This document shows, in pieces, positions 2,701-58,228 of a DNA stretch of 64,000 nucleotides. Origin of the DNA: a virus; the IMG/VR virus record IMGVR_UViG_3300036827_000193, positions 17,388-81,387 of that record; one strand, written 5' to 3'. The position numbers and the translations under genes are program-made. The first letter of the stretch is position 1. Each line of letters starts with the position of its first letter. Below the pieces are notes generated by a model that was given only the letters and a program-made list of their open reading frames with translations, had not been told where the DNA came from and did not search any database.

Positions 2701-5700
2701 TCACATCGCGCCGGCGGGAAGAGCACCGGCCGGAATTGCCGGCAGATGGACCTGCCGGTTGACCTCATTCTTCACCGTCTGGTGGGCTTTTGGCCAATAA
2801 CGGTTGCGCTCGTCCTTGCTGGCCTGGAGCAGGATTGCCTTCTGGTCCTCGTTCGGCAGCCGCGAGAACAGATAGATGTCGGTCGGAACGACGCCGACGT
2901 TTTGCATGTAGCCCGGCTTGAGGCCCAGCGCCTTGCCGCGCTGGTAGGCGTCCTGCAGGGCCTTGCTGTCGTGGTCGCGCTTGGCGATGAGGATGGCGCT
3001 GCGCACCGCCATCTTTTCTTCGGTGCCCTGGGCCTGCTCTTCCGGGCGGCTCGTCGGTGCGACATGCTCGCGGTACAGATAGCTGATGCGGTTCTGGATC
3101 GGCGACTTCTCGACATAGGCCGGTGCCGGGCCGAAGCCCAGCACGCTCATGCCGACGCCCTTGGCCTTGAGCGCATCGAGATATTGTTCCGGGTGCCGGA
3201 TTGCTTCGGCGGCGGACGGGAATGGCTTGCCGGACAACTCGGCCGCATGCTTGGCGCCCGACACCGACATCGGGTTGGTCTGGTCGCCGAAGAAGTGCTT
3301 CACGCCCTGCCAGACCTGCTGGTAGATCGGCGCGTTCTCGTCCCAGATGTTGTAGCCGTAATAATCGCGGTTGGTGAGGAGCTCGTGGAACGGCTCGAAC
3401 ATGAGCTTGTTCCACAGCATCTCGCCGGCGCCCGAGAGCCAGTTGCCGCCGCGCTCCTGCACGTGCTTGAGCAGCATCGGGACTTCGCGAAGGTAGAACA
3501 TGGTCGTGTAGCGGCGCGGCGAGCCATCCGGGTTTTCCCCGCCGGCTCTCGGAAACACATAATCGATACCCTCCGGCTGCTTGCCGGTGAAAAGGTTTGT
3601 CATTATCCCGGCAATGAGGGCGGCGGTGCCGACATAGGCCAGCACGAACGGGATCTTGTTGGTCGCATCACGCGTGACGGCGCGCCCGGCGCTCGGCTTG
3701 AAGGGCGGCAGAAGCCCCGCCGTTCGCGTGCCTGCTTCCAGCGTCGCGCCACCAAACTCGCGCACGAAGCCCAGGTTCCAGCCGAGCGAGAGGAACGAGC
3801 CGATCGCCGCGTCCTTCGTGGTCCGGTTCCAGAACAGCGTGCCGTAGCTCATCTCGCCATAGCGGTTGTCGATCGACTTTGCGATTGCGCGCAGCGCGAT
3901 GCGCCGATTGGTGTCGTCGGCCAAAAGTCCCGGGCGGCGCTTGAGCAGCGATGCCGCCTGATCGAGATAGGCCGCGGCCTTGAGCGCGGGGATCCATTTT
4001 TCGAACAGCGGGGCCTGCAGCACCTCGATCGGCCGGCGCATCGCCGCGGACACCGCCTTGCGCCAGTCCGAAGCGCCGGCCTCGCCACGCAGCACCTTGC
4101 GCCACGCGACCGCCAATTGACGCCTGGCGGCAATCTTCAATTGCTCGGACAGTTGCGGCACAAATCCGCCGTCCGTCATCAGCGCGACGACCGCCTTGTC
4201 CTGTGGCGTTTGCTGCGAGGGCCGCTTTGCCCAAGCCGCGCGGGCCTTGGCGCCCTTGCGGTAGTGGATCATGCCGAGCGTCGGGATCGTGCCGACGCCC
4301 TCTGCGGCAGCCTTGAGCGCCGCCGGCAGGTCGTGGCCCTTGGCGAGATCGTCCCATGCGCGCGCGAGCGAGTTTGCCTGGTCGATGTGCAGCACGTGCA
4401 GCGGGTGGAACGCCGAGAGCGCGAGCTTGATCGGCACCCAGGCATTCTTCAACGCCATCCATCCGCGGAACATCGAGCCGCCGACATGCTCGGCCTGCCA
4501 AAGCCCCTTGGCTTCGACGCCGTTCTGCCACAACTTCTGCACGTCGGGCACGATCACCCATTGCTGGCGATCGGGCGCATTGATGGCGCGCCAGCCGCGG
4601 CGCACCAATTGCTCGCCGCCCTGCTTGCCCTCCCAGGCAAGTCCCATGTCCTTGAGCTGGTAGAGCAGCTCCATGCGCTGGCGCATGTCGACGCCCGACA
4701 GCAGGCGGTGCACCACAATATCGACGGGGTTCGTGAAGCGAAGCTTGAGGCCCGCAGCCAGGCCTTCGGAAATGTAATCGTAGGTCCGCTTCTTCTGGAA
4801 CCAGGTCGGCCCGACCTGGGCGCTGCGCGTCTCCGAAAAAGCGCGCCACTCGTCGGGCTGTTCCCAGATGTGCGGGAAATAGTCGTCCACGAATGCTGCG
4901 CGCGAACCGTAGCGCTGCTCCTCGGCCCAGTTGGCATCGAGGATGCGCCGGTAGCGCCGCGCCATGTCGGCTTGCGTTGCGTCGGCCGGCGTATTGTTGC
5001 TCTCGACATCATCGAGAAAGCGGATGCGCTCGGCGTCGCCGCGCTTGTTCCAGTAATTCCACTGGCTCTCGCTTTGGCGGACGACGGCGTCTTTTTCCTG
5101 CGCCTGGCGCGCCTTGTAGCGGGCAAACAGCGGATCGGCCTCGAGCGCGCGGTCGCTGACAAGTTCGGGCTGGAATGCGGAGGTCCAGAAGTCCTTGAAC
5201 ACCTTGATGGTGCGGATCGGGTCGCCCATCGCGCCGAGTGTGTAGTGGCGGCCCTCTTCGGCAAGTCCTGTGCCGGCAAGTTCTGTGCCGGCAAGTTCTG
5301 CGTCGCCAAGCCCTACGCCGTGCGCGGCTCGCGCCGCTTGCGCTCGATCATCTGCTCCGCCGACGCGATCATGTCCTGGCGCAGCAACGTGTCCTGCGGC
5401 AACTTCCGCAGTTCGTGCAAATGATGCTCCCAGGTCGCCAGCGTGTCGAAGGCTCCCGGCGGATCGATCATCTGGAAGTTCGTCTGGGCCATGAACAGTC
5501 CCTCTCGCGGCATGGGCCGCCAATTCAATGTAGGCGCCGAGCCCAAGCTTCTCAATATCGTCGCCGAACGTGCTGTTCGAGCGGTAATCGATGATGCCGG
5601 CGCGGTGCAGCGCTACCGCGACGGCGTGCGGCAGCAGCGCGTTGGCGGTATCGCGATCGATTCGCCCCGACAACAACGCCGTGTTGATGATGTCGTAGAG

Positions 5701-8700
5701 CTTGTTCTGGACCGCCTCGTGGGCGGCGTAGAGGTATTTCGCCGCCGTAACCGGATCGAAGCGGCGCAGCGCTGCGCGTGCTGACGGTGTCAGTTCGGCG
5801 CGCGCGACATGGCCGCCATGGCCGTGCGCCCAGACCGCATGCAGGCCGGGCAGTCCGAGAAACCCGATATCGGGGCCGCTCAAGGTGCCATCGCGCGGGT
5901 GATTGTGGTGGATGACGATCGCGTTACGCGGATCGCTCGCGATCGCGAAGAGCTTGAGGTCTTGACCGGTGTTGCCAGGACCGCCGCGGGTGTGCGCCAC
6001 GACCTTGCCGTTCTGGTCGACCGCGACAAGATGTTCCAAGCCGGTAGCGATGCCCTGCCTGAGGACGTGGCGCTGTGCCCAGTCGCCGGCGAGCATGTGC
6101 TGGGGGATGGCGATCGGGCCGAGATCGTGCGCCGTGACCTTTGCGGGCTTGGTCTCGCCGGGCTGGAACAGGGCGAAGCCCTGCCCGGTTGCGGCCTGGC
6201 GCAGCGCTGGGGCGATGTCCAGGGTGTGGACGGTGTGCCCCGGATATTTGCTTTTATCCTGCTCCAGAACCAACCCGCGACTTAGATCATTTTGGAAATC
6301 GGCCGGTACTGTTGGCAATTTCCCTTGCCCGACTTTGCCGCCGTACTTCTTGACCAGCTTGTTCGCGGTCTTGGGCAGGATGTCGTCGTAGAAGCCGCGC
6401 ATGCCTTCGCCGCCGACCTTGAGGTCGAGGCCCGAGAGCGTCCTTCGGCCTTTGTCGGTGCCATAAAATCCCGAAGGCTTGCCCTCGCCGGCAGCGATGC
6501 GCGCCGCAACGTCCTTGCCGACGTGGTCGGGCAAGTCCTTTTCCGGAACGCCTTCTGCAATGCGGGTGTTGTCACTACGGCCCTTGAGACGAGCATCGAT
6601 CGTGTAGTGTCCGTCCGCGCCCTTGATGTAGTGCAGGTCGTCGATCTGCTTGCTCAGGTCGTAGCGATCCGCCTGCACATCTCCCGGCGTCCATGCAATC
6701 TTGTCGTAGCCGTGCTCTGCGGCGTAGCGGATGATCCGCTTCAGCGAGAGTTCGGGCCATGTGGTTTTGAACGGGGCGTCGGGGACGCGGGTTCCTTGTT
6801 CGTAGTCCCCATGGATTTTTGCGGAGCGCTGATAATTGTCGACAGCCTCTGCCCGCGCCACGTCTACCGTGTCGCCCCAGCCGGGCCGCTCCGAGCCGTC
6901 CGGCAATGCGAACCAGTGCTTGCCATGATCGCCGTCGGTGCGCACAAACTTGAAATCGCTGTCCGTAAACAGTTTTTGCGGCGGCTGCTTGTAGCCCTTT
7001 TTCTTCCCCGCCTGGTGCCAGTCGCTCTGCACTTCCTCGATGAACAGCGTTTTCTTGCCGTCGATGGTGCGGTCGTTGAAACGGATGTGGGCGAGGACGT
7101 TGGGCTCGTCGAAGTGGGGGGAACGGAAATCTTGATTGGCGGAAGGGGGGCGGTATTCGCGGTCAAACTGCGCGTACCTCTCACGCTCAGCGGGGGACAT
7201 GGCAGCCAGCGTATCATCAGTGCCGGTCGTGCCGTATTTACGGCGCATCTCCATCTCGAAGTCATGCCACGCATCGACTTGCGCGTTGCGCGACGCTTCT
7301 TCACCCGGCAACTTCTCCGGCAGCGTCAGCAGCAGCTCGCGGTAGTTCTCGCCGCCCGGCAGTGTGTACTGCCTGTATTGCGTACCGCCGATGTCGCCAC
7401 CGATTTCTCGCGCAAGATCGGCAACCGCGCCCTCAAAGGACTCGTGATCGCCAAGCATGGTGCCGCGGACAAACGCGGCGTATCCGGTCAGCTCTCCGTT
7501 CTTGTCGTGATAAACATCGATGCCCGTCCCCGTCGACCGGCCAGGCAAGGTCAGTTGCGTGGTCGTCCCGCCTTCATCGTTTTCGACTGGCTCGCCTTGT
7601 GTCCAGTCCTCGATGTCTGACGGCGGTTGCGCGTCGCTTTTCTCCACTTCGCGCACTTCGACCTGATGCGCGCGGACGTAATCGTGCACTTCGGCTTTCG
7701 TCACCGCGCCCTTGTGCTCGCGTAGCCAGTGCTCAAGGCCGAGCCATTCGATCTCCTCGGGCTTGACGCCCGGCGCATTCCTGATGGTGCCGAGCCAATG
7801 GTTCGGCGCCGCCTTGTCCTGCTTGACCGCGGCGACGGCGCGCTCCACTGCGGAGTAGAAGGCTGGCGCATGGCCGAAGGCGTCTTCGCTCTCGGCCAAG
7901 GCAAAGCCGTGTCCCGCCGGTCGCGCCTCTATCGTCTCGAACAAGTGGTCATAGGCCGCTCGGATGCCTTGGTCCCGCATCTCGTCGGCGGTTGGATAAG
8001 CACCACCGGCCGTGTCGATGTTGGCAAGGTAGTCGTTGGCTGCGCCTTTGTCGGCAAGCCGATCGACAATATATCGTTCAAATGAACGGGCGGCCTTCTC
8101 GATGGTCGTGTTCCAGTACGGCTTGGCACGAACCTTGTCGAATTTCGCCGCGCGATCCGCAAAGCCGCCTTTTTGCAGACTGGCCTCGACATTCTTCCAC
8201 GCTTGATAGACCTCGTGACGAACCGGGCCACCGTCGCGGCGGCGCTCGCTGATGTATCCGCTGGCCTGATCCTGCCGCGCGAAGTAGTTATCGAGCGCGT
8301 GCAGCCATTCGTGCGCGAGGGAGCCAGGGCCGCCGCCCTTTGTCAGATTGATGACGACTTGGCCCGGCTCGTAGTGGGCCGATGCCGCATCGCGTCCGCC
8401 ATGGCCGCGAGCGCCGAAGGCAAGCCCGAGCTCGCCGTTCAACGACAATGCCTGGGGCGGAACGCCGACGACATCGGCAAGGTCCATCAGCGCGTCAAAG
8501 GCGCGGTTAAGGTCGGCTTGTCGGCGTTGCCCTTCGACATAATTGCCGAACTGAACCCCGCGGAAGCCGAACGCGCCTGAGAACATTTCCGGGGTGACGT
8601 CGCCCTCGCGCAAGGCCTCGCCGCTGCGCGGTCGGTTTTCCGTGCCGCGCATGTTCGGACCCTTGCGCAGTGCGTCGATGGCCGCCTGCAGGTCGTCCCG

Positions 8701-11700
8701 GTTCTCTTGCAGATATTCTCGCGCAGCCTGCGGTGTTTCAAAGCCGGCCTTCAGCCTTATGACCGTGCTGCGTACCTTAAAACCGAGGAATGCGCCCTTG
8801 GTCTCTCGATCGCGATAAATGCCGACATCGGTATATTTGGACCGCTCCCCGGCCCCCTCGGTGGGCTTTTCTGCCAGGTCGTGAGCGATGATCTTTTTCG
8901 CCAGCGCAACCGCGTCCTCTGGATTGTCGCGATAGGTATACGGGTTGGCGGGGTCGTTACTAAATGGATCGCGCGCGCTGCGACGGTCTGGTGATTCCAA
9001 AAACCAGAACGACTTGGATGGCGAATATCGCTGTCCGTTGAGTATCGAATAGTGACCGGAGTTGACCCGGTAACGCGCGGCCCTTGGCAGATCGGCCGGC
9101 GCAATGTCCTCGATCGCTTTCGCCGTCAGCGGCAGAGTTTGCAGTGCGTAGTTTCCACGCGCTGCCTGCTCAAGCTTGGCGACATCGATCTCGCCGTCCA
9201 GGAGCTGGCGAGCGAAGGTGCGCAGCGTCTCCACCTGTTCAGCCCACCGTTTCGCCTTCCCGGCGACCCGCGGCCGGTTCGGGATCATGTCGCGCATGAT
9301 GGCGATGTGCGAAAGCACGCGCGCGTCGACACCGGCGGCGGCCAGCTTTTCGTAGTCTGGCTGCGGAAACGATTTTGACAGCGGCACCGCTGCGACATCG
9401 AACTTCTCGCGCAGCGAATCGCGAAAGCCCGCAAATGTTTCCTTGCGTGCGCCGCCGATCTTCTCGCCGAAATCCTCGACCTTGGCGACCTTCTCAGGGG
9501 CCGATGTTCTTGTTTCCGATTTGGCGCCGGGCGCGGAATCAGAAGGCCCGGCTGCCCGGGCCTGTGCTGCTTCCGTGTCTGCTGGTTTGTCCGCGGGCTC
9601 GGGCGGTTGCGATGTCAAAACGGGTGGCAGCGCCTTGGCGGGCTTTCGCGCCAGGTCGACAAGATCGGTTTGTTTGCTCTCATCGCCGAACAGCCCTTCA
9701 TCCGCCGGCTTCTGTACTGCCTTCGGCTTCAGGCTTCGGTCGGCGGCTCGCTGGGCGCGCTCGGCGTCTGAGATTTGCTCGGCACCAGGGAGGACGTGCT
9801 GCTGTCCTGCGGCTGTTCGCTCTGTGACAGGTTGAGTTCGTTCACCTGATCGCTTTCCGCCTTGGGCGCGTACTTCTCCGCGTCCCGGTCCTGCGCTCGC
9901 GCCAGCGCCAGATGCAACCCCGCCAGCTTGTGCGCGCTGTGCCGCTTCTTCAACGGCAGGTTCGGTGCGCTCTGGCGCAGGCTTTTCGCCATGCCTCGGT
10001 GGGTGTCGCTCGTCAAGCGCATTGAACACTTCCTCTCCGGCAAGGATACCCTCGACTTTGTCCCGGTGCAATTCATCCGCGATCATGTCCTCATCGCGGG
10101 CATATTGCATGATGACCGATTCGAGGGCGTCCAGCGGGTCCTCGCCGCGGTCGAGCATCCGCTCCATAGCGTCAAACCGCAGCGCCTCTGGCACACTATC
10201 GAGTGGGATTTTCTGTTCTTTCAGCGCGGCATCGAAGATCGGGCGCTGGGTTTCGATCTCTTGCTTGCGCCGTGCGTTGTCCTGCCGGACGCTGGTGCCT
10301 TGGGCGCGAAGTTTTTCTTCCGTGGTCTTGTAGGTCGGCCAAGGCGACCCGCGTCCCTCGTCGCGCATCCTTTGTGCGCGGGCGCGATAGGCCTCCTGAT
10401 TCGCGATCATGCCGCCAAATGGCTTGCCGCCGCTTACGGCATCTTTGGCAGCCCGGGCAGGCTTGTGTTCAACAGCGGCTTCGGCGCCGCCGCCAGTCCG
10501 CCCGTCATCGGCTTCGGCAGTGCGTTCCCCGCCGGCGGTGTCACCCCCAGCGCCGGCCCCTGTCGCGGGATGACCGGTTGCGGCGGCTTGAGGCTCGCGC
10601 CCGGTGCCTTCACCGCGAGCGGGCTCTTGGGGCCGAGCAGGTTCTTCAGGCCGTGCAGCTTCAACGCCGCCTTGATCGACAGCTTGCGCGCCCGCGGCAG
10701 TCGCCCGATCAGTTGTGGCGCCTGATGCCGCAGCGCCCAGCCCGCGTTCAGACCCGTCGCGGGCTTCCAGTAGCTCGGTTGTTGCTTCATCGCCGATGTC
10801 CTTCGCGATCTCGTCGCGGCTCATGTGACCGTCTTCGACCAGCGAGCGCACCACGGCCGTGGTGAAGGCATCATCCGGTGGCGCGCCTTCGTTGGCGTGG
10901 ATCTCGGCGGCGCGAACTATATCGGCTGGCCGTACGGTGTCCGGGTCGACGCCGGCGGCGCGCAGCGTGTCCTCGATGGCCTGGTGGTGCTCGGGGCCCG
11001 CTTCGGGGGCGGCTCCAGCCCGTTCGCCGGAAATTGGAGTAGTCTTGGCGGTGGGTTCCGGCTCCGCCCTTACATTATTAGTAGGCGAGCCATGCGCGGT
11101 TCCCGCTTCGGTCCCGGCCGCTTGCATGGCGGGTGCGGTTTCCGGCGGGGTTTCCGGCGGGTTTTCCGCCGCCATCGCCTCGGAGGCCGCAGCCTTGGTG
11201 TTGCCGGTCTTGAGCCAGTCCTTGAACTCGCCGACCGGCATCGCCCGCATGCCGCCGATGTGCTGGGGCTTCTTCGAGCTGGTGCCGAGATAGGCCTGGA
11301 TGGCTTCGGAGGGGCCATCGAACCCGATCATCGCCTTGTGCTGGCGGAACGCGCCGGTCGCCTCGTCCTTCTCGTCGAGCACATAGACGGTCGGACGCTG
11401 CGGGTTTGGTCCCATGAAGACGTCGACGTGCATGCCGTCGGCGCCTTCGGTGCCTTTTACATAGCCATAAGGTACCGAGTGGGTGGTCTGCCACGCCTCA
11501 CCGGTTTCCGGATTGGTACCGCGGCGCACGCCGCCGGCCGGCGCCTCGATCGTGATGTCGAGACCGTTCCAGCGCATGTGGCCGCGTTGGACATTGTTGG
11601 CTTCACCTTGCTCCGGTGAGTGATCCTGGTCGGCGACGGATGCGGCGCGCGCGACGTCATCGGCGGTCTTGACCTCGACCGGCGCCTCGCGCGTGCCTTC

Positions 11701-13539
11701 CTGCGGCGCTTCGGCGCCGGCATGCACGCCGTTCTTCAACGCCTCATCGACCGCGTCGGCCTTCTCATCCGGCTTCATGCCGGCGACGTCGTCCTTGGAG
11801 TAGCCGTAGCGGCGCAGCACCTCGTCATCGTCGGCGCGCTGTGAGCCGTAGCCGAACTTGGTGTTGACGTAATCCTTGAGGTCGTCGTCGTTCCACGAGC
11901 GGATCGTGTCGCGATCGAATTCCTTGTAGTAGGCCGCGGCCTCCTCGAGCTTGAAGCGCGCGCGCGCGCCCATCTTGGTCTCGAACGGTTGCGGTTTTTC
12001 GCCCGGCTGCTGTTGCTGCGCGCCGGATCCCGGCGCTGATCCCGAACCGCCGCCGGTTTGCTGCTGTTGGTCACCGCCCGCCTGATGGTCCCACTCCCCA
12101 TTCATCGGGTTGTAGTACCAGCGCCCCCCGGCGGCATCGTCGCGATACCACGTGCCATTGAAGCCGCGGCCGCTGGTGCCCCATTGGTAATCGGGATCGT
12201 AGGGATCATCGCGGCGTGGCGACCCGGTCGGGCGCGCGCCCGCGCCGGCAGCACCGGCGCCGCCGGGCGATTCACCCGGGCGAGGACCGCCGCCCGAACC
12301 CGCTGCCGCGCCAGGCGCTTCGCTTCCCGGCAGTGCGCCCGACACCGCGGCTGCCGGCTGATCCGCTGTGGCGGCCGGCTCGGCGGCATTGCGATTGCCG
12401 AATGTCGAAAGCCCGTGCGTGCCGCCACCGACCGCGAGACCGGTGATGTAGCTCGCCAGCATGCGCTTGAAGTCGGGCGTGTAGGCCGCGTTCTTGTCGT
12501 AGTAGGCCGCGGCGATCTTCTGGTTGAGGTAGTCCTGCGCCTCGCCGATGCCGGTAAAGACGACACCGTCACGCAGCGCGTGTTCGAGGGTTGCCGCTGC
12601 CCAGCCGGCGAGGCCAGGTGCAACCTGCTTGACCGGCGCGAGCACGGAGCCGAGCGGGATCATGCCGAGGCCGCCGCCGACAAGCCCGGAGAGCCCGGCC
12701 GCCTTCGCGGCATCGTCGTCGCTCGCGCCCTTTTGCTTGGCGGCGTCGAAAGTTTCCCCCGCAGACGACAGCCCCATGCCGAGTCCGCCCATGGCGAGAC
12801 CGGTGAGCGGGCCGGCTGCGAGACCGCCAGCGACGTACGGCGCTATGCCGCCGATGCCACCCGCCACCTTGCTGGTGAGCGTTTCCTTCTCGGCTGGCGA
12901 CAGCGGCGCGGCTGCCTCGCCGAATTGCTTGACCGATCGTCCGGCCCGGTAGAGCGCGTTGTCCTCGATCGGCGTGGCGCCGACGGTTGCGGTGCCGGTG
13001 ATGTCGCCGCTGTTGGGGTCGACGGTGTCCTGAATATCGGACGGAGCGGTGTTGCCCGATGCTCCGGTGACGGCACGGCCAAGCCGGTCAAGGCCGACGG
13101 CTGCGCCCTGCATGATATCGCCGGTCTGCCCGGTGATGCCCTGCACCGCCGATTTTGCCGCGACGCCAGGCAACGACGACCACGGCACATCCTCGGGCTT
13201 TGCAGCTTTCGCCGACTGGCCGCCGACCGTCGCGGTGCCGGTGATCGGCGGCTCGTCGCTTGGTGCTTCGCCGTACTGCGAGAAGTCGATGGCCGGCGCC
13301 TTGTCGACTTCATCCTGCGTCTTGCCGAACGCGCCGAAATCGGGCTGCGCCTTCTGCGCATCCTGGTGCTGCTGCAGTTGCTGCTGCTGGCGCTTATCGA
13401 GTGTCTTGCGGATGAGGCGGTTGAGCACCGCCTGCGGGTCGACGGCATTGTTCTGGACAAGCTCGGGCGCGCGCTCGGTGATGAGATCGTTGACGATGCC
13501 TTGCGGGTCGACCGCCCCAAGCGCGTCGGCGAGGCTCAT
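2701..13539 (-). CDS. Giant polyvalent virion/ejection protein (3612 codons), possibly a fusion of separate genes
   Basis: Start ATG overlaps the upstream stop as TAATG. Domains, from motifs: Pro/Gln-rich start with DFGAFG (67-72) and DFSQYG (85-90); glycine-rich hydrophobic segment about 210-320; inorganic-pyrophosphatase-like polyvalent domain about 655-770; an LPD5-like region from about 1350; an LPD1-like domain with zinc-protease motif HEWLH (His1743, Glu1744, His1747); a region with FIEEVQSDWHQ near 2165; a JAB/RadC-like HHNHP motif (His2545, His2547) with downstream Asp; and a C-terminal third (from about 2771) with a transmembrane helix near 3298-3320. Polyvalent proteins of this sort are packaged and delivered into the host with phage DNA. 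Around 5313-5492 the codon bias switches to another frame, so this may be two genes joined across a nested one. Confidence 0.85.
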   Translation of the reverse strand: MSLADALGAVDPQGIVNDLITERAPELVQNNAVDPQAVLNRLIRKTLDKRQQQQLQQHQDAQKAQPDFGAFGKTQDEVDKAPAIDFSQYGEAPSDEPPITGTATVGGQSAKAAKPEDVPWSSLPGVAAKSAVQGITGQTGDIMQGAAVGLDRLGRAVTGASGNTAPSDIQDTVDPNSGDITGTATVGATPIEDNALYRAGRSVKQFGEAAAPLSPAEKETLTSKVAGGIGGIAPYVAGGLAAGPLTGLAMGGLGMGLSSAGETFDAAKQKGASDDDAAKAAGLSGLVGGGLGMIPLGSVLAPVKQVAPGLAGWAAATLEHALRDGVVFTGIGEAQDYLNQKIAAAYYDKNAAYTPDFKRMLASYITGLAVGGGTHGLSTFGNRNAAEPAATADQPAAAVSGALPGSEAPGAAAGSGGGPRPGESPGGAGAAGAGARPTGSPRRDDPYDPDYQWGTSGRGFNGTWYRDDAAGGRWYYNPMNGEWDHQAGGDQQQQTGGGSGSAPGSGAQQQQPGEKPQPFETKMGARARFKLEEAAAYYKEFDRDTIRSWNDDDLKDYVNTKFGYGSQRADDDEVLRRYGYSKDDVAGMKPDEKADAVDEALKNGVHAGAEAPQEGTREAPVEVKTADDVARAASVADQDHSPEQGEANNVQRGHMRWNGLDITIEAPAGGVRRGTNPETGEAWQTTHSVPYGYVKGTEGADGMHVDVFMGPNPQRPTVYVLDEKDEATGAFRQHKAMIGFDGPSEAIQAYLGTSSKKPQHIGGMRAMPVGEFKDWLKTGNTKAAASEAMAAENPPETPPETAPAMQAAGTEAGTAHGSPTNNVRAEPEPTAKTTPISGERAGAAPEAGPEHHQAIEDTLRAAGVDPDTVRPADIVRAAEIHANEGAPPDDAFTTAVVRSLVEDGHMSRDEIAKDIGDEATTELLEARDGSERGLGAAASGATTDRATAAGAQAVDQGGVEAARPEEPARPQEPARGEGTGREPQAAATGHPATGAGAGGDTAGGERTAEADDGRTGGGAEAAVEHKPARAAKDAVSGGKPFGGMIANQEAYRARAQRMRDEGRGSPWPTYKTTEEKLRAQGTSVRQDNARRKQEIETQRPIFDAALKEQKIPLDSVPEALRFDAMERMLDRGEDPLDALESVIMQYARDEDMIADELHRDKVEGILAGEEVFNALDERHPPRHGEKPAPERTEPAVEEAAQRAQAGGVASGAGASAGPGRGEVRAQGGKRSGERTQPVTERTAAGQQHVLPGAEQISDAERAQRAADRSLKPKAVQKPADEGLFGDESKQTDLVDLARKPAKALPPVLTSQPPEPADKPADTEAAQARAAGPSDSAPGAKSETRTSAPEKVAKVEDFGEKIGGARKETFAGFRDSLREKFDVAAVPLSKSFPQPDYEKLAAAGVDARVLSHIAIMRDMIPNRPRVAGKAKRWAEQVETLRTFARQLLDGEIDVAKLEQAARGNYALQTLPLTAKAIEDIAPADLPRAARYRVNSGHYSILNGQRYSPSKSFWFLESPDRRSARDPFSNDPANPYTYRDNPEDAVALAKKIIAHDLAEKPTEGAGERSKYTDVGIYRDRETKGAFLGFKVRSTVIRLKAGFETPQAAREYLQENRDDLQAAIDALRKGPNMRGTENRPRSGEALREGDVTPEMFSGAFGFRGVQFGNYVEGQRRQADLNRAFDALMDLADVVGVPPQALSLNGELGLAFGARGHGGRDAASAHYEPGQVVINLTKGGGPGSLAHEWLHALDNYFARQDQASGYISERRRDGGPVRHEVYQAWKNVEASLQKGGFADRAAKFDKVRAKPYWNTTIEKAARSFERYIVDRLADKGAANDYLANIDTAGGAYPTADEMRDQGIRAAYDHLFETIEARPAGHGFALAESEDAFGHAPAFYSAVERAVAAVKQDKAAPNHWLGTIRNAPGVKPEEIEWLGLEHWLREHKGAVTKAEVHDYVRAHQVEVREVEKSDAQPPSDIEDWTQGEPVENDEGGTTTQLTLPGRSTGTGIDVYHDKNGELTGYAAFVRGTMLGDHESFEGAVADLAREIGGDIGGTQYRQYTLPGGENYRELLLTLPEKLPGEEASRNAQVDAWHDFEMEMRRKYGTTGTDDTLAAMSPAERERYAQFDREYRPPSANQDFRSPHFDEPNVLAHIRFNDRTIDGKKTLFIEEVQSDWHQAGKKKGYKQPPQKLFTDSDFKFVRTDGDHGKHWFALPDGSERPGWGDTVDVARAEAVDNYQRSAKIHGDYEQGTRVPDAPFKTTWPELSLKRIIRYAAEHGYDKIAWTPGDVQADRYDLSKQIDDLHYIKGADGHYTIDARLKGRSDNTRIAEGVPEKDLPDHVGKDVAARIAAGEGKPSGFYGTDKGRRTLSGLDLKVGGEGMRGFYDDILPKTANKLVKKYGGKVGQGKLPTVPADFQNDLSRGLVLEQDKSKYPGHTVHTLDIAPALRQAATGQGFALFQPGETKPAKVTAHDLGPIAIPQHMLAGDWAQRHVLRQGIATGLEHLVAVDQNGKVVAHTRGGPGNTGQDLKLFAIASDPRNAIVIHHNHPRDGTLSGPDIGFLGLPGLHAVWAHGHGGHVARAELTPSARAALRRFDPVTAAKYLYAAHEAVQNKLYDIINTALLSGRIDRDTANALLPHAVAVALHRAGIIDYRSNSTFGDDIEKLGLGAYIELAAHAARGTVHGPDELPDDRSAGSLRHAGDLGASFARTAEVAAGHVAAPGHDRVGGADDRAQAARAAHGVGLGDAELAGTELAGTGLAEEGRHYTLGAMGDPIRTIKVFKDFWTSAFQPELVSDRALEADPLFARYKARQAQEKDAVVRQSESQWNYWNKRGDAERIRFLDDVESNNTPADATQADMARRYRRILDANWAEEQRYGSRAAFVDDYFPHIWEQPDEWRAFSETRSAQVGPTWFQKKRTYDYISEGLAAGLKLRFTNPVDIVVHRLLSGVDMRQRMELLYQLKDMGLAWEGKQGGEQLVRRGWRAINAPDRQQWVIVPDVQKLWQNGVEAKGLWQAEHVGGSMFRGWMALKNAWVPIKLALSAFHPLHVLHIDQANSLARAWDDLAKGHDLPAALKAAAEGVGTIPTLGMIHYRKGAKARAAWAKRPSQQTPQDKAVVALMTDGGFVPQLSEQLKIAARRQLAVAWRKVLRGEAGASDWRKAVSAAMRRPIEVLQAPLFEKWIPALKAAAYLDQAASLLKRRPGLLADDTNRRIALRAIAKSIDNRYGEMSYGTLFWNRTTKDAAIGSFLSLGWNLGFVREFGGATLEAGTRTAGLLPPFKPSAGRAVTRDATNKIPFVLAYVGTAALIAGIMTNLFTGKQPEGIDYVFPRAGGENPDGSPRRYTTMFYLREVPMLLKHVQERGGNWLSGAGEMLWNKLMFEPFHELLTNRDYYGYNIWDENAPIYQQVWQGVKHFFGDQTNPMSVSGAKHAAELSGKPFPSAAEAIRHPEQYLDALKAKGVGMSVLGFGPAPAYVEKSPIQNRISYLYREHVAPTSRPEEQAQGTEEKMAVRSAILIAKRDHDSKALQDAYQRGKALGLKPGYMQNVGVVPTDIYLFSRLPNEDQKAILLQASKDERNRYWPKAHQTVKNEVNRQVHLPAIPAGALPAGAM
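5259..5303 (-). repeat. Three tandem 15-bp units
   Basis: Three consecutive 15-bp copies (5259-5273, 5274-5288, 5289-5303) differ at one to three positions. In the giant frame they encode a repeated ELAGT/GLAEE segment; in the nested-gene frame they encode repeated NLPAQ. They sit just after the stop of the nested gene, at the proposed junction between the two halves of the giant ORF. Confidence 0.75.
5313..5492 (-). CDS. Nested small gene (59 aa) in another frame inside the giant ORF
   Basis: ATG 5492 is preceded by GAGGGA with six bases of spacing, a good ribosome site. The 59-residue product looks like a natural helical protein: an N-terminal MAQTNFQMIDPPGAFDTL, then a TWEHHLHELRKLP segment and a basic C-terminus ending at TAG 5313. 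In this frame 54 of 59 codons end in G or C. In the overlapping frame of the giant ORF only about 24 of the same 59 third positions are G or C, and that translation is Ala/Gly/His/Arg-rich like a non-coding frame. I therefore regard this frame as the real one here. The family is not recognised. Confidence 0.7.
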   Translation of the reverse strand: MAQTNFQMIDPPGAFDTLATWEHHLHELRKLPQDTLLRQDMIASAEQMIERKRREPRTA

Positions 13540-21652: not shown

Positions 21653-22201
21653 ATGACCAAGGCTGACACAGCCTACATTAGATTCATTGACGCAGGGCGG
21701 CGGTTTAACCGCCTTACCGCCATCGAATTTGTCGGCTACGAAGCGACGCCGCGCAGAAAGCCGCTCTGGCGTTTTCGGTGTGACTGCGGGAACGAGTGCA
21801 TCAGCCGCACCGAGAGCGTCAGAAGCGGGAATACAAAAAGCTGCGGATGTCAAAAGGTCGACAGCACTCGGAGGGTTGGCCATGCCAATTTTGTGCACGG
21901 CCAGAGCGACACGAGGATTTACCGAATCTGGCACGCCATGCTGCATCGCTGCAGCAACCCGAAGAATGAAAAATTTGAATACTATGGCGGTCGCGGAATT
22001 TCGGTTTGCCGCGAATGGCACTCAATCCACGATTTCAGAGATTGGGCGCTGGCCAATGGTTACGCCAAGAACCTCACGATCGACCGGTATCCCGACAAAG
22101 ACGGAAACTACGAGCCCCGCAATTGCCGGTGGGTGACGATAGAAGAGCAGCAGACGAACCGCCGCCCGCGCCGCTGGTTGAAACGACCCCCCGTCGCGTG
22201 A
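21653..22201 (+). CDS. HNH-type homing-endonuclease-like protein (freestanding)
   Basis: A 182-residue plus-strand protein with the layout of phage HNH-like endonucleases: an N-terminal Cys cluster (CDCGNEC, later CGC), HGQSDTRIYRIWHAMLHRC, YYGGRGISVC and a C-terminal LTIDRYPDKDGNYEPRNCRW. GGAG lies upstream of ATG 21653. It is inserted between two minus-strand structural genes and disrupts neither, so it is a freestanding mobile endonuclease gene. Its target is unknown. Confidence 0.75.
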   Translation: MTKADTAYIRFIDAGRRFNRLTAIEFVGYEATPRRKPLWRFRCDCGNECISRTESVRSGNTKSCGCQKVDSTRRVGHANFVHGQSDTRIYRIWHAMLHRCSNPKNEKFEYYGGRGISVCREWHSIHDFRDWALANGYAKNLTIDRYPDKDGNYEPRNCRWVTIEEQQTNRRPRRWLKRPPVA

Positions 22202-23629: not shown

Positions 23630-26323
23630 TTACGCCGCGCTGTCCCACATCACGACCCGCGAGTTGAGCGAGTCGGTGTGGACCAAACCAAAACCGCCGA
23701 GGTAATTGATTGTGTTCACCCGTCGTCGCTAACGACGGGCCGAGACGACCTTTTTGTAGGTCAACTCTGCTGGCTCTTTCGAACCAGTCCAGACCATATC
23801 TTCAGTGACGCAAGTTGCTTTTTTGCGTTACTGCTGGGGGCTTCGGTGCGCTTGCACCTACGAGCTTTCGCTCTGGTCGTTGAAGCTTCCTCTGCGTGAG
23901 AGGCTCGCCTGCTGATTATCCAATCTCAGAACTTTTCAGGCCGTCACGCCTGCGGTCGCCCGCTACGTTGTGGCGTTCTGAGCTTTAGGAACTTCCAGCA
24001 ATTCTCCCAGTTTTTACGCCTAGCATTATTCTCTACCAGGCGATGCCCCGGCTGCGACCGTAGTCGCCCGGGATCTTCGCGCGGACTTCCTCGGGTACGC
24101 ACACGGCTTCAGTGACCGTGTCACCGCCGCAGAAGAACGCCCAGGAAGACAGGCCATTCGTCCACGGTTGCGCAACGCCGCTCCACGGATCGTACGACGT
24201 GGCATTCGCCGCGCCGCCCTTGGGAACGAACGTCTGCTCGATGAAGCGGCAGGACTCGTACCTGCCGATTTCGCCGTTGAAGATGTGCGCGAGACCGGTC
24301 TCGGTGTACTGGTGGATGGTCTCGAGCGAATTCTTGAAGTTGCGATACGTGGTCGGATGCGACACCGCCACGTAGTCATCCGCCGTGAACGGCGGAATGT
24401 TTCGCTCCTTCATGGTGTCGACGATCGCCTTGACGTGCCCGGTACCGAGCGCGACGTTGTTCGTCACGGTTGCGGTGCCGTTGGTGTCGAGGTTGATGGC
24501 GGTCGTCGAAGTGCTGGAAGACGGCTCGGCGCGCAGCAGAGTGTTCTTGAACTGCAAGAACGACTCGATGTCGAAGTATTTGCGCGCGTCGTCCTTCAGC
24601 GTTTTGTCGATGATCGCGGCGACCTGATGCTTCGCCAGCGCGACCAGCTTGCCGGTGTAGGGAACGCTATTCCCAGCTTCAAAGCAGAATTGTTCTTTGC
24701 CGCGGCTCTTTATCCGCAGCCTCAACCGCTCGCGCGATTGCTCAGACTATCTCTTGCAGATTACTGTGATCTGCCCGGGCGCTCGTGGTCGGATTATTCT
24801 TTCGTCACCGACTAGTCGTTACGCCTTCCGCGCCCCTGGGGCTCTCGCCTTACATGCGCGACTTGGCTCGGGATTGTCTCTGAGAGAGGTTCCCCGAATT
24901 CACCCGGTGTTTCACCTTACGCGGCGAGCGCGAAGGTGCGGCCTGTGTTGACCGTAAGCTGGTGTTGCAGCATGACGAACCCGGTCTCCGGGATCGGGGC
25001 GCTTTCGTCCAGCCGGCGGCCTTGCGTGCCGAGGTTGGAATAAACGTCCCAGTTGAACTTGTCGCCGCGGTTGAGGCCTTTCTTGGTGCCATCCTCGGCG
25101 TCGCAGAGCTGCCGCATCTTGGTCAGCGGCTGCACCTGCTGGCGGAGCACGTCCGACAATTCGTCGGAGTACATGAATCCGCCCTCAGTGGGGACTGCCT
25201 TTTGTTCGCACGATCCCGTTTGTGGATCGTTCCTGCATCTTTCAATGCAGAGCAGACTATATCTTGAAATCTTCTGCCGGTATCCCACATACATCCCTAG
25301 CGGGGAAACACATGCGCATCACCAAATCACAACTCGTCGCCCTCTACGCAAAGAGGACTGACGATCAAATCGGCAAGCTGTTCGGCGTAACCGGCCATTC
25401 AGTTGGCGATTGGCGACGGCATTATGGCATCCAGCGCAAACCAAGAGAGACTTACAACAAGTATACCCTTGATCGCGATTTTTTCGCGAAGATTGACACC
25501 GAAGAGAAGGCGTACGCGCTCGGTCTTATAGCGTCCGATGGATGGGTGGCCCGATCTGGAAAGCAAGTGAGCCTTGCTCTTCAGGTTCGAGACCGGCACA
25601 TCCTTTATGATCTTCGACGCGCCCTGAAGTCGGATGCTCGTGTCTTCGACAAGGCGAGAGGCGGCTTTGCCGGCTCTGGCCCGCGGAAACAGATTACCTT
25701 CGACAGCAAGAAGCTGGTCGCCGATCTGGCGCGCTGGGGTGTCATCCCCGGAAAATCAGTCACCCTCCGCTACCCCCGTATTCCGAAACATCTTGAGTGC
25801 CATTTTGCGCGAGGACTTTTTGACGGGGATGGGCACATTCGCGCCCACCCGAAAAAGCTCTTTTATTTTCTTGGCACTTCCGACCTGATCGACGGACTAC
25901 GAAAGTCGATCATCCGACATACGGGCGCGGCGCTCGCCAAGTACGAGGCCGTGGGCTGTTGGCGGATTTCTGGATACGGTGGCAGCGTCGCGGTGCTGCG
26001 GTGGATGTATGAAGATGCGACGATCTGCCTTCGCAGGAAGCATCGCGTCTTCTTGAGGTACTGGAAGTGATGTCCTGGGCGCTCGTGGGACCGATTATCG
26101 TCGGGGTCTCACAGTCCTAGTCGTTGAACCTTCCGAGCTACAGTTTCCCCTGCTCGGCTTGGCTGCTGATCGGCCAATCCCTGATCTTTTCGCGCATTCA
26201 CGCTCGCCCTCTCGGGCCACGTTGTAGCGATCAAGGCTCTAAGGCTGTTCCAGCAATTCACCCAGTGCGCACTCTGAACTCGCATTCAGAGGGGGGCTAA
26301 GTTACCCACAATTGTCCTGCCAT
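23630..26323 (-). CDS. Major capsid protein (N4-gp56-like), split into four exons by three group I introns
   Basis: Exons, 5' to 3': 26323-26304, 25181-24951, 24684-24035 and 23718-23630; joined they give 990 bp, about 329 residues. Exon 1 encodes MAGQLW and part of the next codon, exon 2 FMYSDELSDVLRQQVQP and onward, exon 3 EAGNSVPYTGKL to RSRGIAW, exon 4 GGFGLVHTD to VVMWDSAA. This matches N4-gp56-type capsid proteins. The internal stops between these blocks all fall in sequences with group I intron core elements. The scaffold gene lies just upstream and AAGGA precedes ATG 26323. The 5' splice sites are supported by P1 pairing; the 3' ends of introns 1 and 3 may be off by up to about 12 bases. 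Confidence 0.85.
23719..24034 (-). ncRNA. Group I intron 3 in the capsid gene (about 316 nt, no ORF)
   Basis: Core elements on the minus strand: P (AATTGCTGGAA, 24003-23993), Q (AATCAGCAGGC, 23917-23907), R (CTTCAACGACCAGA, 23885-23872) and S (AAGATATGGTCT, 23802-23791). P1 pairs exon GCCTGGT with intron GCTAGGC over seven base pairs ending in the U-G pair, fixing the 5' site after 24035. A P9-region hairpin CCCGTCGT/ACGACGGG precedes the 3' end. The in-frame site with a terminal G is 23719; a join 12 bases later would give IAW-YYLGG but leave a terminal A. Confidence 0.87.
24685..24950 (-). ncRNA. Group I intron 2 in the capsid gene (266 nt, no ORF)
   Basis: Core elements on the minus strand: P (AATTCGGGGAAC, 24900-24889), Q (AATCCCGAGCCAAG, 24875-24862), R (GTAACGACTAGTC, 24822-24810) and S (AAGAGATAGTCT, 24755-24744). 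P1 pairs exon CGGT with intron GCCG, with the terminal U-G pair; P2 is CACCTT/AAGGTG. The terminal G at 24685 restores the capsid frame, giving LTV-F-EAGNSVPYTGKL. Too short to carry an endonuclease. Confidence 0.88.
25182..26303 (-). ncRNA. Group I intron 1 in the capsid gene (carries an antisense endonuclease gene)
   Basis: Core elements on the minus strand: P (AATTGCTGGAA, 26258-26248), Q (GATCAGCAGCCA, 26172-26161), R (GTTCAACGACTAGGACT, 26129-26113) and S (AAGATATAGTCT, 25265-25254). P1 pairs exon GGGT with intron GCCC, giving the usual U-G pair at the splice site; a P2 hairpin CTCTGAA/TTCAGAG follows. The gap between R and S (P8 region) holds the LAGLIDADG gene on the other strand. A P9 hairpin (ACGATCC/GGATCGT) follows S. 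The 3' end shown is the in-frame site with a terminal G. Confidence 0.85.
25312..26070 (+). CDS. LAGLIDADG homing endonuclease, antisense within intron 1
   Basis: A 252-residue protein (ATG 25312). The N-terminus (about 1-45) has a helix-turn-helix-like DDQIGKLFGVTGHSVGDWRR. Two LAGLIDADG motifs follow: YALGLIASDGW (68-78) and FARGLFDGDGH (165-175), each with the acidic catalytic Asp, so a single-chain two-motif enzyme. It lies between the R and S elements of the intron, on the opposite strand to the intron and capsid mRNA, so it needs its own promoter. It probably spreads intron 1 into intron-less capsid genes. Confidence 0.88.
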   Translation: MRITKSQLVALYAKRTDDQIGKLFGVTGHSVGDWRRHYGIQRKPRETYNKYTLDRDFFAKIDTEEKAYALGLIASDGWVARSGKQVSLALQVRDRHILYDLRRALKSDARVFDKARGGFAGSGPRKQITFDSKKLVADLARWGVIPGKSVTLRYPRIPKHLECHFARGLFDGDGHIRAHPKKLFYFLGTSDLIDGLRKSIIRHTGAALAKYEAVGCWRISGYGGSVAVLRWMYEDATICLRRKHRVFLRYWK

Positions 26324-58152: not shown

Positions 58153-58228
58153 TGGAAGCGGGGGTAGGAATCGAACCTACGACCTTGTGGTTATGAGCCA
58201 CACGAGCTGACCGCTGCTCCACCCCGCA
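58153..58228 (-). tRNA. tRNA-Met (anticodon CAT), possibly initiator-like
   Basis: The 76-nt sequence folds into a cloverleaf: acceptor TGCGGGG with CCCCGCT; D stem GAGC/GCTC; anticodon stem TGTGG/CCACA with loop CTCATAA; T arm GTAGG/CCTAC with TTCGATT; encoded CCA at 58155-58153. The first pair (T1-T72) is a mismatch, as in initiator tRNAs, but only two G-C pairs lie at the anticodon-stem end. A tRNA-Ile with modified CAT anticodon cannot be excluded. It lies at the end of a CDS. Confidence 0.88.

What the first reader, a model, noticed from the sequence alone, without database searches (positions are those of the whole stretch)
23630..26323. Major capsid gene split by three group I introns
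Four blocks of one N4-gp56-type capsid protein are interrupted by three segments, each with P, Q, R and S core elements in order and P1 pairings that end exon sequences in a U-G pair. In-frame stops occur at each boundary. Three self-splicing introns in one phage capsid gene is unusual and means capsid supply depends on RNA splicing.
Basis: partly seen in the sequence, partly recalled or inferred. Interest (0 to 1): 0.85.

Follow-up and report, generated by a model that had tools for sequence, protein, structure and literature searches.

The report
Phage capsid gene with three introns
The gene for a phage's main shell protein is cut by three ribozyme-type (group I) introns, one of which carries a DNA-cutting homing enzyme gene on the opposite strand; each ingredient is already known, but this capsid gene family turns out to be an unusually busy landing site for such introns.

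Summary
On the minus strand of a metagenomic phage contig, an N4-gp56-like major capsid gene (26323 to 23630) lies in four exons split by three segments. All three match the Rfam group I intron model (68, 51 and 42 bits; the last is below the curated cut-off of 50, E = 1.5e-8). Joined exons give a 330-residue protein, the length of uninterrupted relatives, under strong purifying selection (dN/dS 0.04). P3 and P7 helices covary across 12 introns from this gene family.

Corrections: intron 2 is canonical. Intron 3 has a perfect 5' site but ends in A, not the expected G. Intron 1 makes the expected U-G pair, yet joins in frame only one base away, and a second phage (L005) shares this. So splicing of introns 1 and 3 is likely but not secured.

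Relatives show at least eleven insertion sites, and an unrelated HNH family sits antisense in 7 of 7 cases. A capsid intron with a bottom-strand LAGLIDADG gene is already published and shown to splice (mycobacteriophage LittleE), and three-intron phage genes are known. New member of a known kind.

The parts
26305..26323 (-). Exon 1 of the major capsid gene (MAGQLW + first base of codon 7; base 26304, a T, would belong to the exon under the U-G rule)
   Evidence: Homology to uninterrupted genes, only synonymous differences from L005 and L007
25198..26304 (-). Group I intron 1 (site A), 1106-1107 bases, with antisense endonuclease gene in the P8 loop
   Evidence: RF00028 50.7 bits; P1, P3, P7, P9.0 read from sequence; sister intron in L005; one-base frame conflict
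25312..26070 (+). LAGLIDADG homing endonuclease gene, 252 aa, antisense to capsid and intron
   Evidence: PF14528 E 4.4e-7, PHROG 4645 endonuclease E 7.4e-46; dN 0.21, dS 1.89 against L005 copy
24951..25197 (-). Exon 2 of the capsid gene (..AVPTEGG to HQLTV)
   Evidence: Homology and in-frame join
24685..24950 (-). Group I intron 2 (site B), 266 bases, no endonuclease gene
   Evidence: RF00028 42.4 bits, E 1.5e-8; U at 5' exon end, terminal G, in-frame join; sister intron in L172
24035..24684 (-). Exon 3 of the capsid gene (FEAGNSVPYTG to SRGIAW)
   Evidence: Homology and in-frame join
23707..24034 (-). Group I intron 3 (site D), 328 bases, no endonuclease gene; last base A
   Evidence: RF00028 68.1 bits; z -6.2; same site as introns in L060 and Vibrio phage 1.232.O
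23630..23706 (-). Exon 4 of the capsid gene (YLGGFG to stop)
   Evidence: Homology and in-frame join

Best explanation
A major capsid gene of a phage related to PTXU04 has been invaded at three positions by group I introns, probably of the IA2 type common in phages. The introns are removed from the late transcript so that a normal 330-aa capsid protein is made. Intron 1 is, or recently was, mobile: its LAGLIDADG endonuclease, encoded on the opposite strand, would cut intron-less capsid alleles at the insertion site and repair would copy the intron in. Introns 2 and 3 have no endonuclease gene and are passive or relics; related introns at the same two sites in other phages do carry one. Shown: the split gene, three group I cores, the joined frame, selection on the exons and on the antisense gene, recurrence of introns at the same sites. 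Inferred: splicing in the cell, homing, endonuclease activity, IA2 type.
For: RF00028 matches on the coding strand of all three segments. P3/P7 covariation. Joined 330-aa protein colinear with uninterrupted capsid genes, 87-91% identical to the nearest, dN/dS 0.04-0.11. Introns group by insertion site across different phages, as homing predicts. Relatives in L005, L172, L060 and Vibrio phage 1.232.O at the same sites. Antisense endonuclease has clear family matches and is under purifying selection. Precedent with proven splicing: LittleE capsid intron with bottom-strand LAGLIDADG gene (PMC3706429).
Against: Intron 3 ends in A where L060 and L089 end in G. Intron 1 joins in frame only with a 5' site one base before the U-G pair or a 3' site one base after the terminal G. 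Intron 2 scores below Rfam's curated cut-off. No RNA data. No sigma-70-like promoter found for the antisense gene.
Confidence: 0.85

Rival explanations
1. The segments are group I introns, but introns 3 and perhaps 1 no longer splice exactly in this genome: a damaged or poorly splicing variant, or a base error in the assembly at the end of intron 3.
For: Terminal A of intron 3 and the frame conflict of intron 1; 16 of 16 other introns examined (window intron 2 among them) follow U/G rules in frame.
Against: Exons remain under strong purifying selection, so the lineage makes working capsid; the intron 1 conflict is shared with L005, so it is neither a random error nor recent decay.
Confidence: 0.2
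2. The gene is a decaying pseudogene and capsid protein comes from another copy.
For: Stops at each boundary.
Against: dN/dS 0.04-0.11 over all exons, full-length joined frame; portal-like and terminase genes lie on the same strand. A second capsid copy was not searched for in the other 17 kb of the contig.
Confidence: 0.03
3. The insertions are inteins or plain endonuclease gene insertions, not ribozymes.
For: They interrupt a conserved gene and one carries an endonuclease.
Against: In-frame stops in each segment; group I core on the coding strand of all three; the endonuclease frame is on the other strand, so it cannot be part of an intein.
Confidence: 0.01

Closest known systems
Capsid-gene intron of mycobacteriophage LittleE (PMC3706429)
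   Same: Group I-like intron in a major capsid gene, with a LAGLIDADG endonuclease frame on the bottom strand; splicing shown by RT-PCR and protein sequencing
   Different: One intron only, in an HK97-like capsid gene of an unrelated phage
Phage genes with two or three group I introns (Bastillevirinae DNA polymerase and terminase, PMC11878797; Twort, cited there)
   Same: Several group I introns in one phage gene
   Different: Other genes; no antisense endonuclease mentioned in the Bastillevirinae paper
Capsid genes of PTXU04, Pondi and Vibrio phage 1.232.O
   Same: 45-48% identical over nearly the whole capsid protein; 1.232.O has a group I intron at the site of intron 3
   Different: PTXU04 and Pondi genes are uninterrupted; 1.232.O shows one intron, ending in G
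Antisense endonuclease genes in nuclear rDNA group I introns (Didymium, PMC9548176)
   Same: Endonuclease gene on the strand opposite the ribozyme
   Different: His-Cys family, eukaryotic rDNA, own RNA polymerase II transcript

Membership tests
Group I intron (RF00028) | Match to the covariance model of the catalytic core | tested here: met
   68.1, 50.7 and 42.4 bits; the third is under the gathering score of 50 but has E 1.5e-8 and a sister intron in L172
Group I intron (RF00028) | P3 and P7 helices conserved by compensating changes | tested here: met
   introns; helices chosen by hand
Group I intron (RF00028) | 5' exon ends in U paired with G, compatible with the frame | tested here: inconclusive
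   Met for introns 2 and 3; intron 1 has the U-G pair but the canonical join is out of frame by one base
Group I intron (RF00028) | Terminal G at the 3' end | tested here: inconclusive
   Met for introns 1 and 2, not met for intron 3, which ends in A
Group I intron (RF00028) | Self-splicing RNA | not testable with these tools
   Needs in vitro transcription or RNA data
Group I subgroup IA2 | P7.1/P7.2 between P7 and P3 and extra P9 hairpins | tested here: inconclusive
   Two hairpins at that place in intron 3 and P9.1/P9.2-like hairpins read from sequence and fold; no subgroup model was run
N4-gp56 major capsid family (TIGR04387) | Score at or above the curated cut-off | tested here: not met
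   44.4 bits against 60, E 1.3e-11: a distant relative
PTXU04-type major capsid protein | Full-length homology and gene neighbourhood | tested here: met
   47.5% over 99%, PHROG 1357, portal-like and terminase genes nearby; weak fold match to capsids
LAGLIDADG homing endonuclease | Family domain with two motif copies | tested here: met
   PF14528 above its cut-off, two stretches; motifs YALGLIASDG and FARGLFDGDG visible in the sequence
LAGLIDADG homing endonuclease | Cuts the intron-less allele at the insertion site | not testable with these tools
   Needs purified enzyme and target DNA

The most novel reading that the evidence does not exclude
The antisense orientation is functional: in this capsid gene family two unrelated endonuclease families sit opposite to the ribozyme in at least 11 introns, and in the HNH cases read closely the end of the endonuclease frame runs antisense through the intron's guide sequence. 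Transcribing the endonuclease could mask the intron and hold back capsid splicing, tying homing (early) to capsid production (late). The site-A introns would in addition splice one base away from the U-G rule.
Probability: 0.08. Interest if true: 0.75.

Novelty: new member of a known kind. Interest (0 to 1): 0.45.

Why it matters
A highly expressed structural gene can apparently carry several ribozyme introns at once, and one capsid gene family is a recurrent landing site: relatives show at least eleven insertion positions, introns shared between distant phages at the same positions, and a 21-base exon squeezed between two introns in L172. It also gives a comparative set for a neglected question: how endonuclease genes placed antisense to their intron are expressed without harming splicing. 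Practically, such capsid genes are misannotated: the deposited capsid protein of cultured Vibrio phage 1.232.O stops inside its intron.

Tried and rejected
(1) Intron 1 with a 5' splice at other U positions (TTGT|, CAAT|): no guide sequence able to pair; rejected by reading the sequence. (2) Intron 1 with a 3' splice further upstream, to keep the frame: gives different positions in the window and in L005, which share the 3' motif GCGAACA..AG; rejected. (3) A start codon in another frame upstream of exon 1: an ATG exists in the window but none in L005; rejected. (4) More site-A introns by DNA patterns in IMG/VR: only L005 found; the scan did show intron-less relatives with TGGGTN (valine 7), so a TGGGU exon end is tolerated in the family. 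(5) Sigma-70-like promoters for the antisense gene: none, shuffles give 1.0; uninformative, since the phage may use other promoters. (6) Relatives of the LAGLIDADG protein outside capsid genes: of 15 loci scanned, one had an intron above cut-off (L109, same strand as the endonuclease); not pursued. (7) Structure prediction of the capsid gave a weak model (pLDDT 60), so the fold comparison is only supporting. (8) A search for published exceptions to the terminal-G rule failed on a search-term error and was not repeated.

Full report
What was checked. The finding places a capsid gene with three group I introns at 23630-26323. The gene is on the minus strand; the start codon begins at 26323 and the stop ends at 23630. 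The window is part of an 81,387-base IMG/VR virus record.

The introns are real by covariance model. Rfam's Intron_gpI (RF00028) matches, on the coding strand, 24106-23770 (68.1 bits), 26313-25233 (50.7 bits) and 24936-24723 (42.4 bits, below the gathering score of 50 but E = 1.5e-8 in 5 kb). All matches in the whole contig fall within this gene. Intron 3 folds far better than shuffles (z = -6.2), intron 2 moderately (z = -2.4). Across 12 introns of this gene family the P3 helix is perfectly paired in eight sequence versions, and P7 in two main versions plus one with a G-U pair. On the two helices together 16 cells carry two-sided changes against 4.0 +/- 1.7 in shuffles, and slid partners pair at 20-53%. 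I chose the helices by hand from the core motifs, so this confirms rather than discovers them.

The host gene is a capsid gene. A provisional joined protein (335 aa, before the junctions were fixed) matches the PTXU04/Pondi capsid protein at 47.5% over 99%. The final joined protein is 330 aa, the length of relatives, and 87-91% identical to L006, L007 and L011, with dN/dS 0.04-0.11. It is a distant relative of the N4-gp56 family: TIGR04387 44.4 bits against a cut-off of 60, PHROG 1357 major head protein. Portal-like and terminase genes lie on the same strand. Among the loci fetched by then, 142 hold the gene uninterrupted (99 distinct sequences), including copies in Bradyrhizobium and other proteobacterial genomes.

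Exact anatomy. Exon 1 26323-26305, intron 1 26304-25198, exon 2 25197-24951, intron 2 24950-24685, exon 3 24684-24035, intron 3 24034-23707, exon 4 23706-23630. Exon 2 ends at HQLTV; the open block runs on 31 bases into intron 2 before its TAA.

Junctions. In 16 of 16 introns examined (window intron 2 among them, the cases below apart) the 5' exon ends in U, the intron ends in G and the join is in frame (in one search three rows, L254, L256 and L257, were entered one base off, and the 3' flanks printed show G before TCC). Intron 3 has a seven-pair P1 (GCCUGGU/GCUAGGC), a possible P10 (AUUA/UAAU) and P9.0 (GA/UC), but its last base is A; at the same site L060 and Vibrio phage 1.232.O (L089) end in G. 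Intron 1 has P1 GGGU/GCCC and, by P9.0 (CU/AG; in L005 UG/CA), a proper terminal G, but the canonical join adds one base. It is in frame, and identical in length to relatives, only if the exon ends TGGG rather than TGGGU, or if the 3' exon starts one base later. L005 shows the same conflict, so it is not a random error. These two points are unexplained.

Intron 1 contains a 252-aa LAGLIDADG endonuclease gene on the plus strand (25312-26070), antisense to capsid and ribozyme, in the P8 loop. It is under purifying selection against the L005 copy (dN 0.21, dS 1.89; codon-position differences 55/40/133). The same family sits antisense at site B in L172 and at site C in L010. An unrelated HNH family is antisense at site C or an adjacent site in 7 of 7 loci found in IMG/VR (L251-L257; L251 is the L005 contig and L255 the L043 contig); four of them have an Rfam group I match on the opposite strand beside it. 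In L005, L043 and L252 the last codons of the HNH frame run antisense through the guide sequence (read). That makes at least 11 antisense cases in this gene family. Sense-strand endonucleases also occur (L010, L043, L056, L060, L064, L071, L172), and some of those insertions gave no Rfam match, so they are called introns here only by position and junction.

Distribution. Interrupted capsid genes define at least eleven insertion positions (about residues 6, 35, 52, 89, 93, 96, 187, 227, 297, 306 and 310). Introns group by site rather than by phage: site A window + L005; site B window + L172; site C L005 + L172 + L043 (L010 apart); site D window + L060 + L089, with one short fragment falling among them. 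That is the pattern homing leaves. L172 has introns at sites B and C with a 21-base exon between them. The B and C introns form one clade (support 1.0), which suggests a short-range move between two sites with the same CGGU exon end.

How it likely works. The late transcript is spliced at three places to make capsid protein; the antisense endonuclease of intron 1 spreads that intron to intron-less alleles; introns 2 and 3 have lost, or never had, an endonuclease gene. Splicing and homing are inferred.

What is known. Capsid-gene introns are reported in mycobacteriophage LittleE and lactococcal phage Tuc2009 (PMC3706429). LittleE is very close in design: its capsid intron has a bottom-strand LAGLIDADG frame, and splicing was shown by RT-PCR and protein sequencing. 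Two or three introns in one phage gene are reported in Bastillevirinae polymerase and terminase genes (PMC11878797) and in Twort (title cited there). Antisense endonucleases are known in nuclear rDNA introns (PMC9548176). In the open papers searched I found no report of three introns in one phage capsid gene or of antisense HNH genes in phage introns; subscription papers are largely missing from the library, so this absence is weak.

Verdict. Observation confirmed; interpretation partly supported; a rich new member of a known kind. Interest 0.45.

Noticed in passing
L089 (Vibrio phage 1.232.O._10N.261.51.E11), 2001-3264: The deposited major capsid protein ends inside a group I intron (83 bits); the last 24 or so residues are in a second exon at about 3176-3264, so the annotation looks wrong.
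   Followed up: partly
L172, 4225-5669: Two group I introns 21 bases apart (sites B and C) with a micro-exon between them; the capsid gene there starts with GTG.
   Followed up: partly
window 21653-22201, + strand: HNH endonuclease gene (PHROG 374, E 7.8e-61) on the strand opposite to the structural genes, apparently between genes; no intron found there by Rfam.
   Followed up: no
window 2701-13539, - strand: A 3612-aa open reading frame, possibly a giant virion protein; not identified.
   Followed up: no
window 58156-58228, - strand: A tRNA gene (62.8 bits, Rfam).
   Followed up: no
L245-L250: Uninterrupted capsid homologs (55-72% identical) in Bradyrhizobium, Rhodobacteraceae, Pseudothauera, Polaromonas and Methylophaga genome contigs, hinting at proteobacterial hosts.
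   Followed up: no
L010, 3737-4999: The site-C intron has a 3' end like the B/C family but a core closer to site-A and site-D introns, as if recombined.
   Followed up: no
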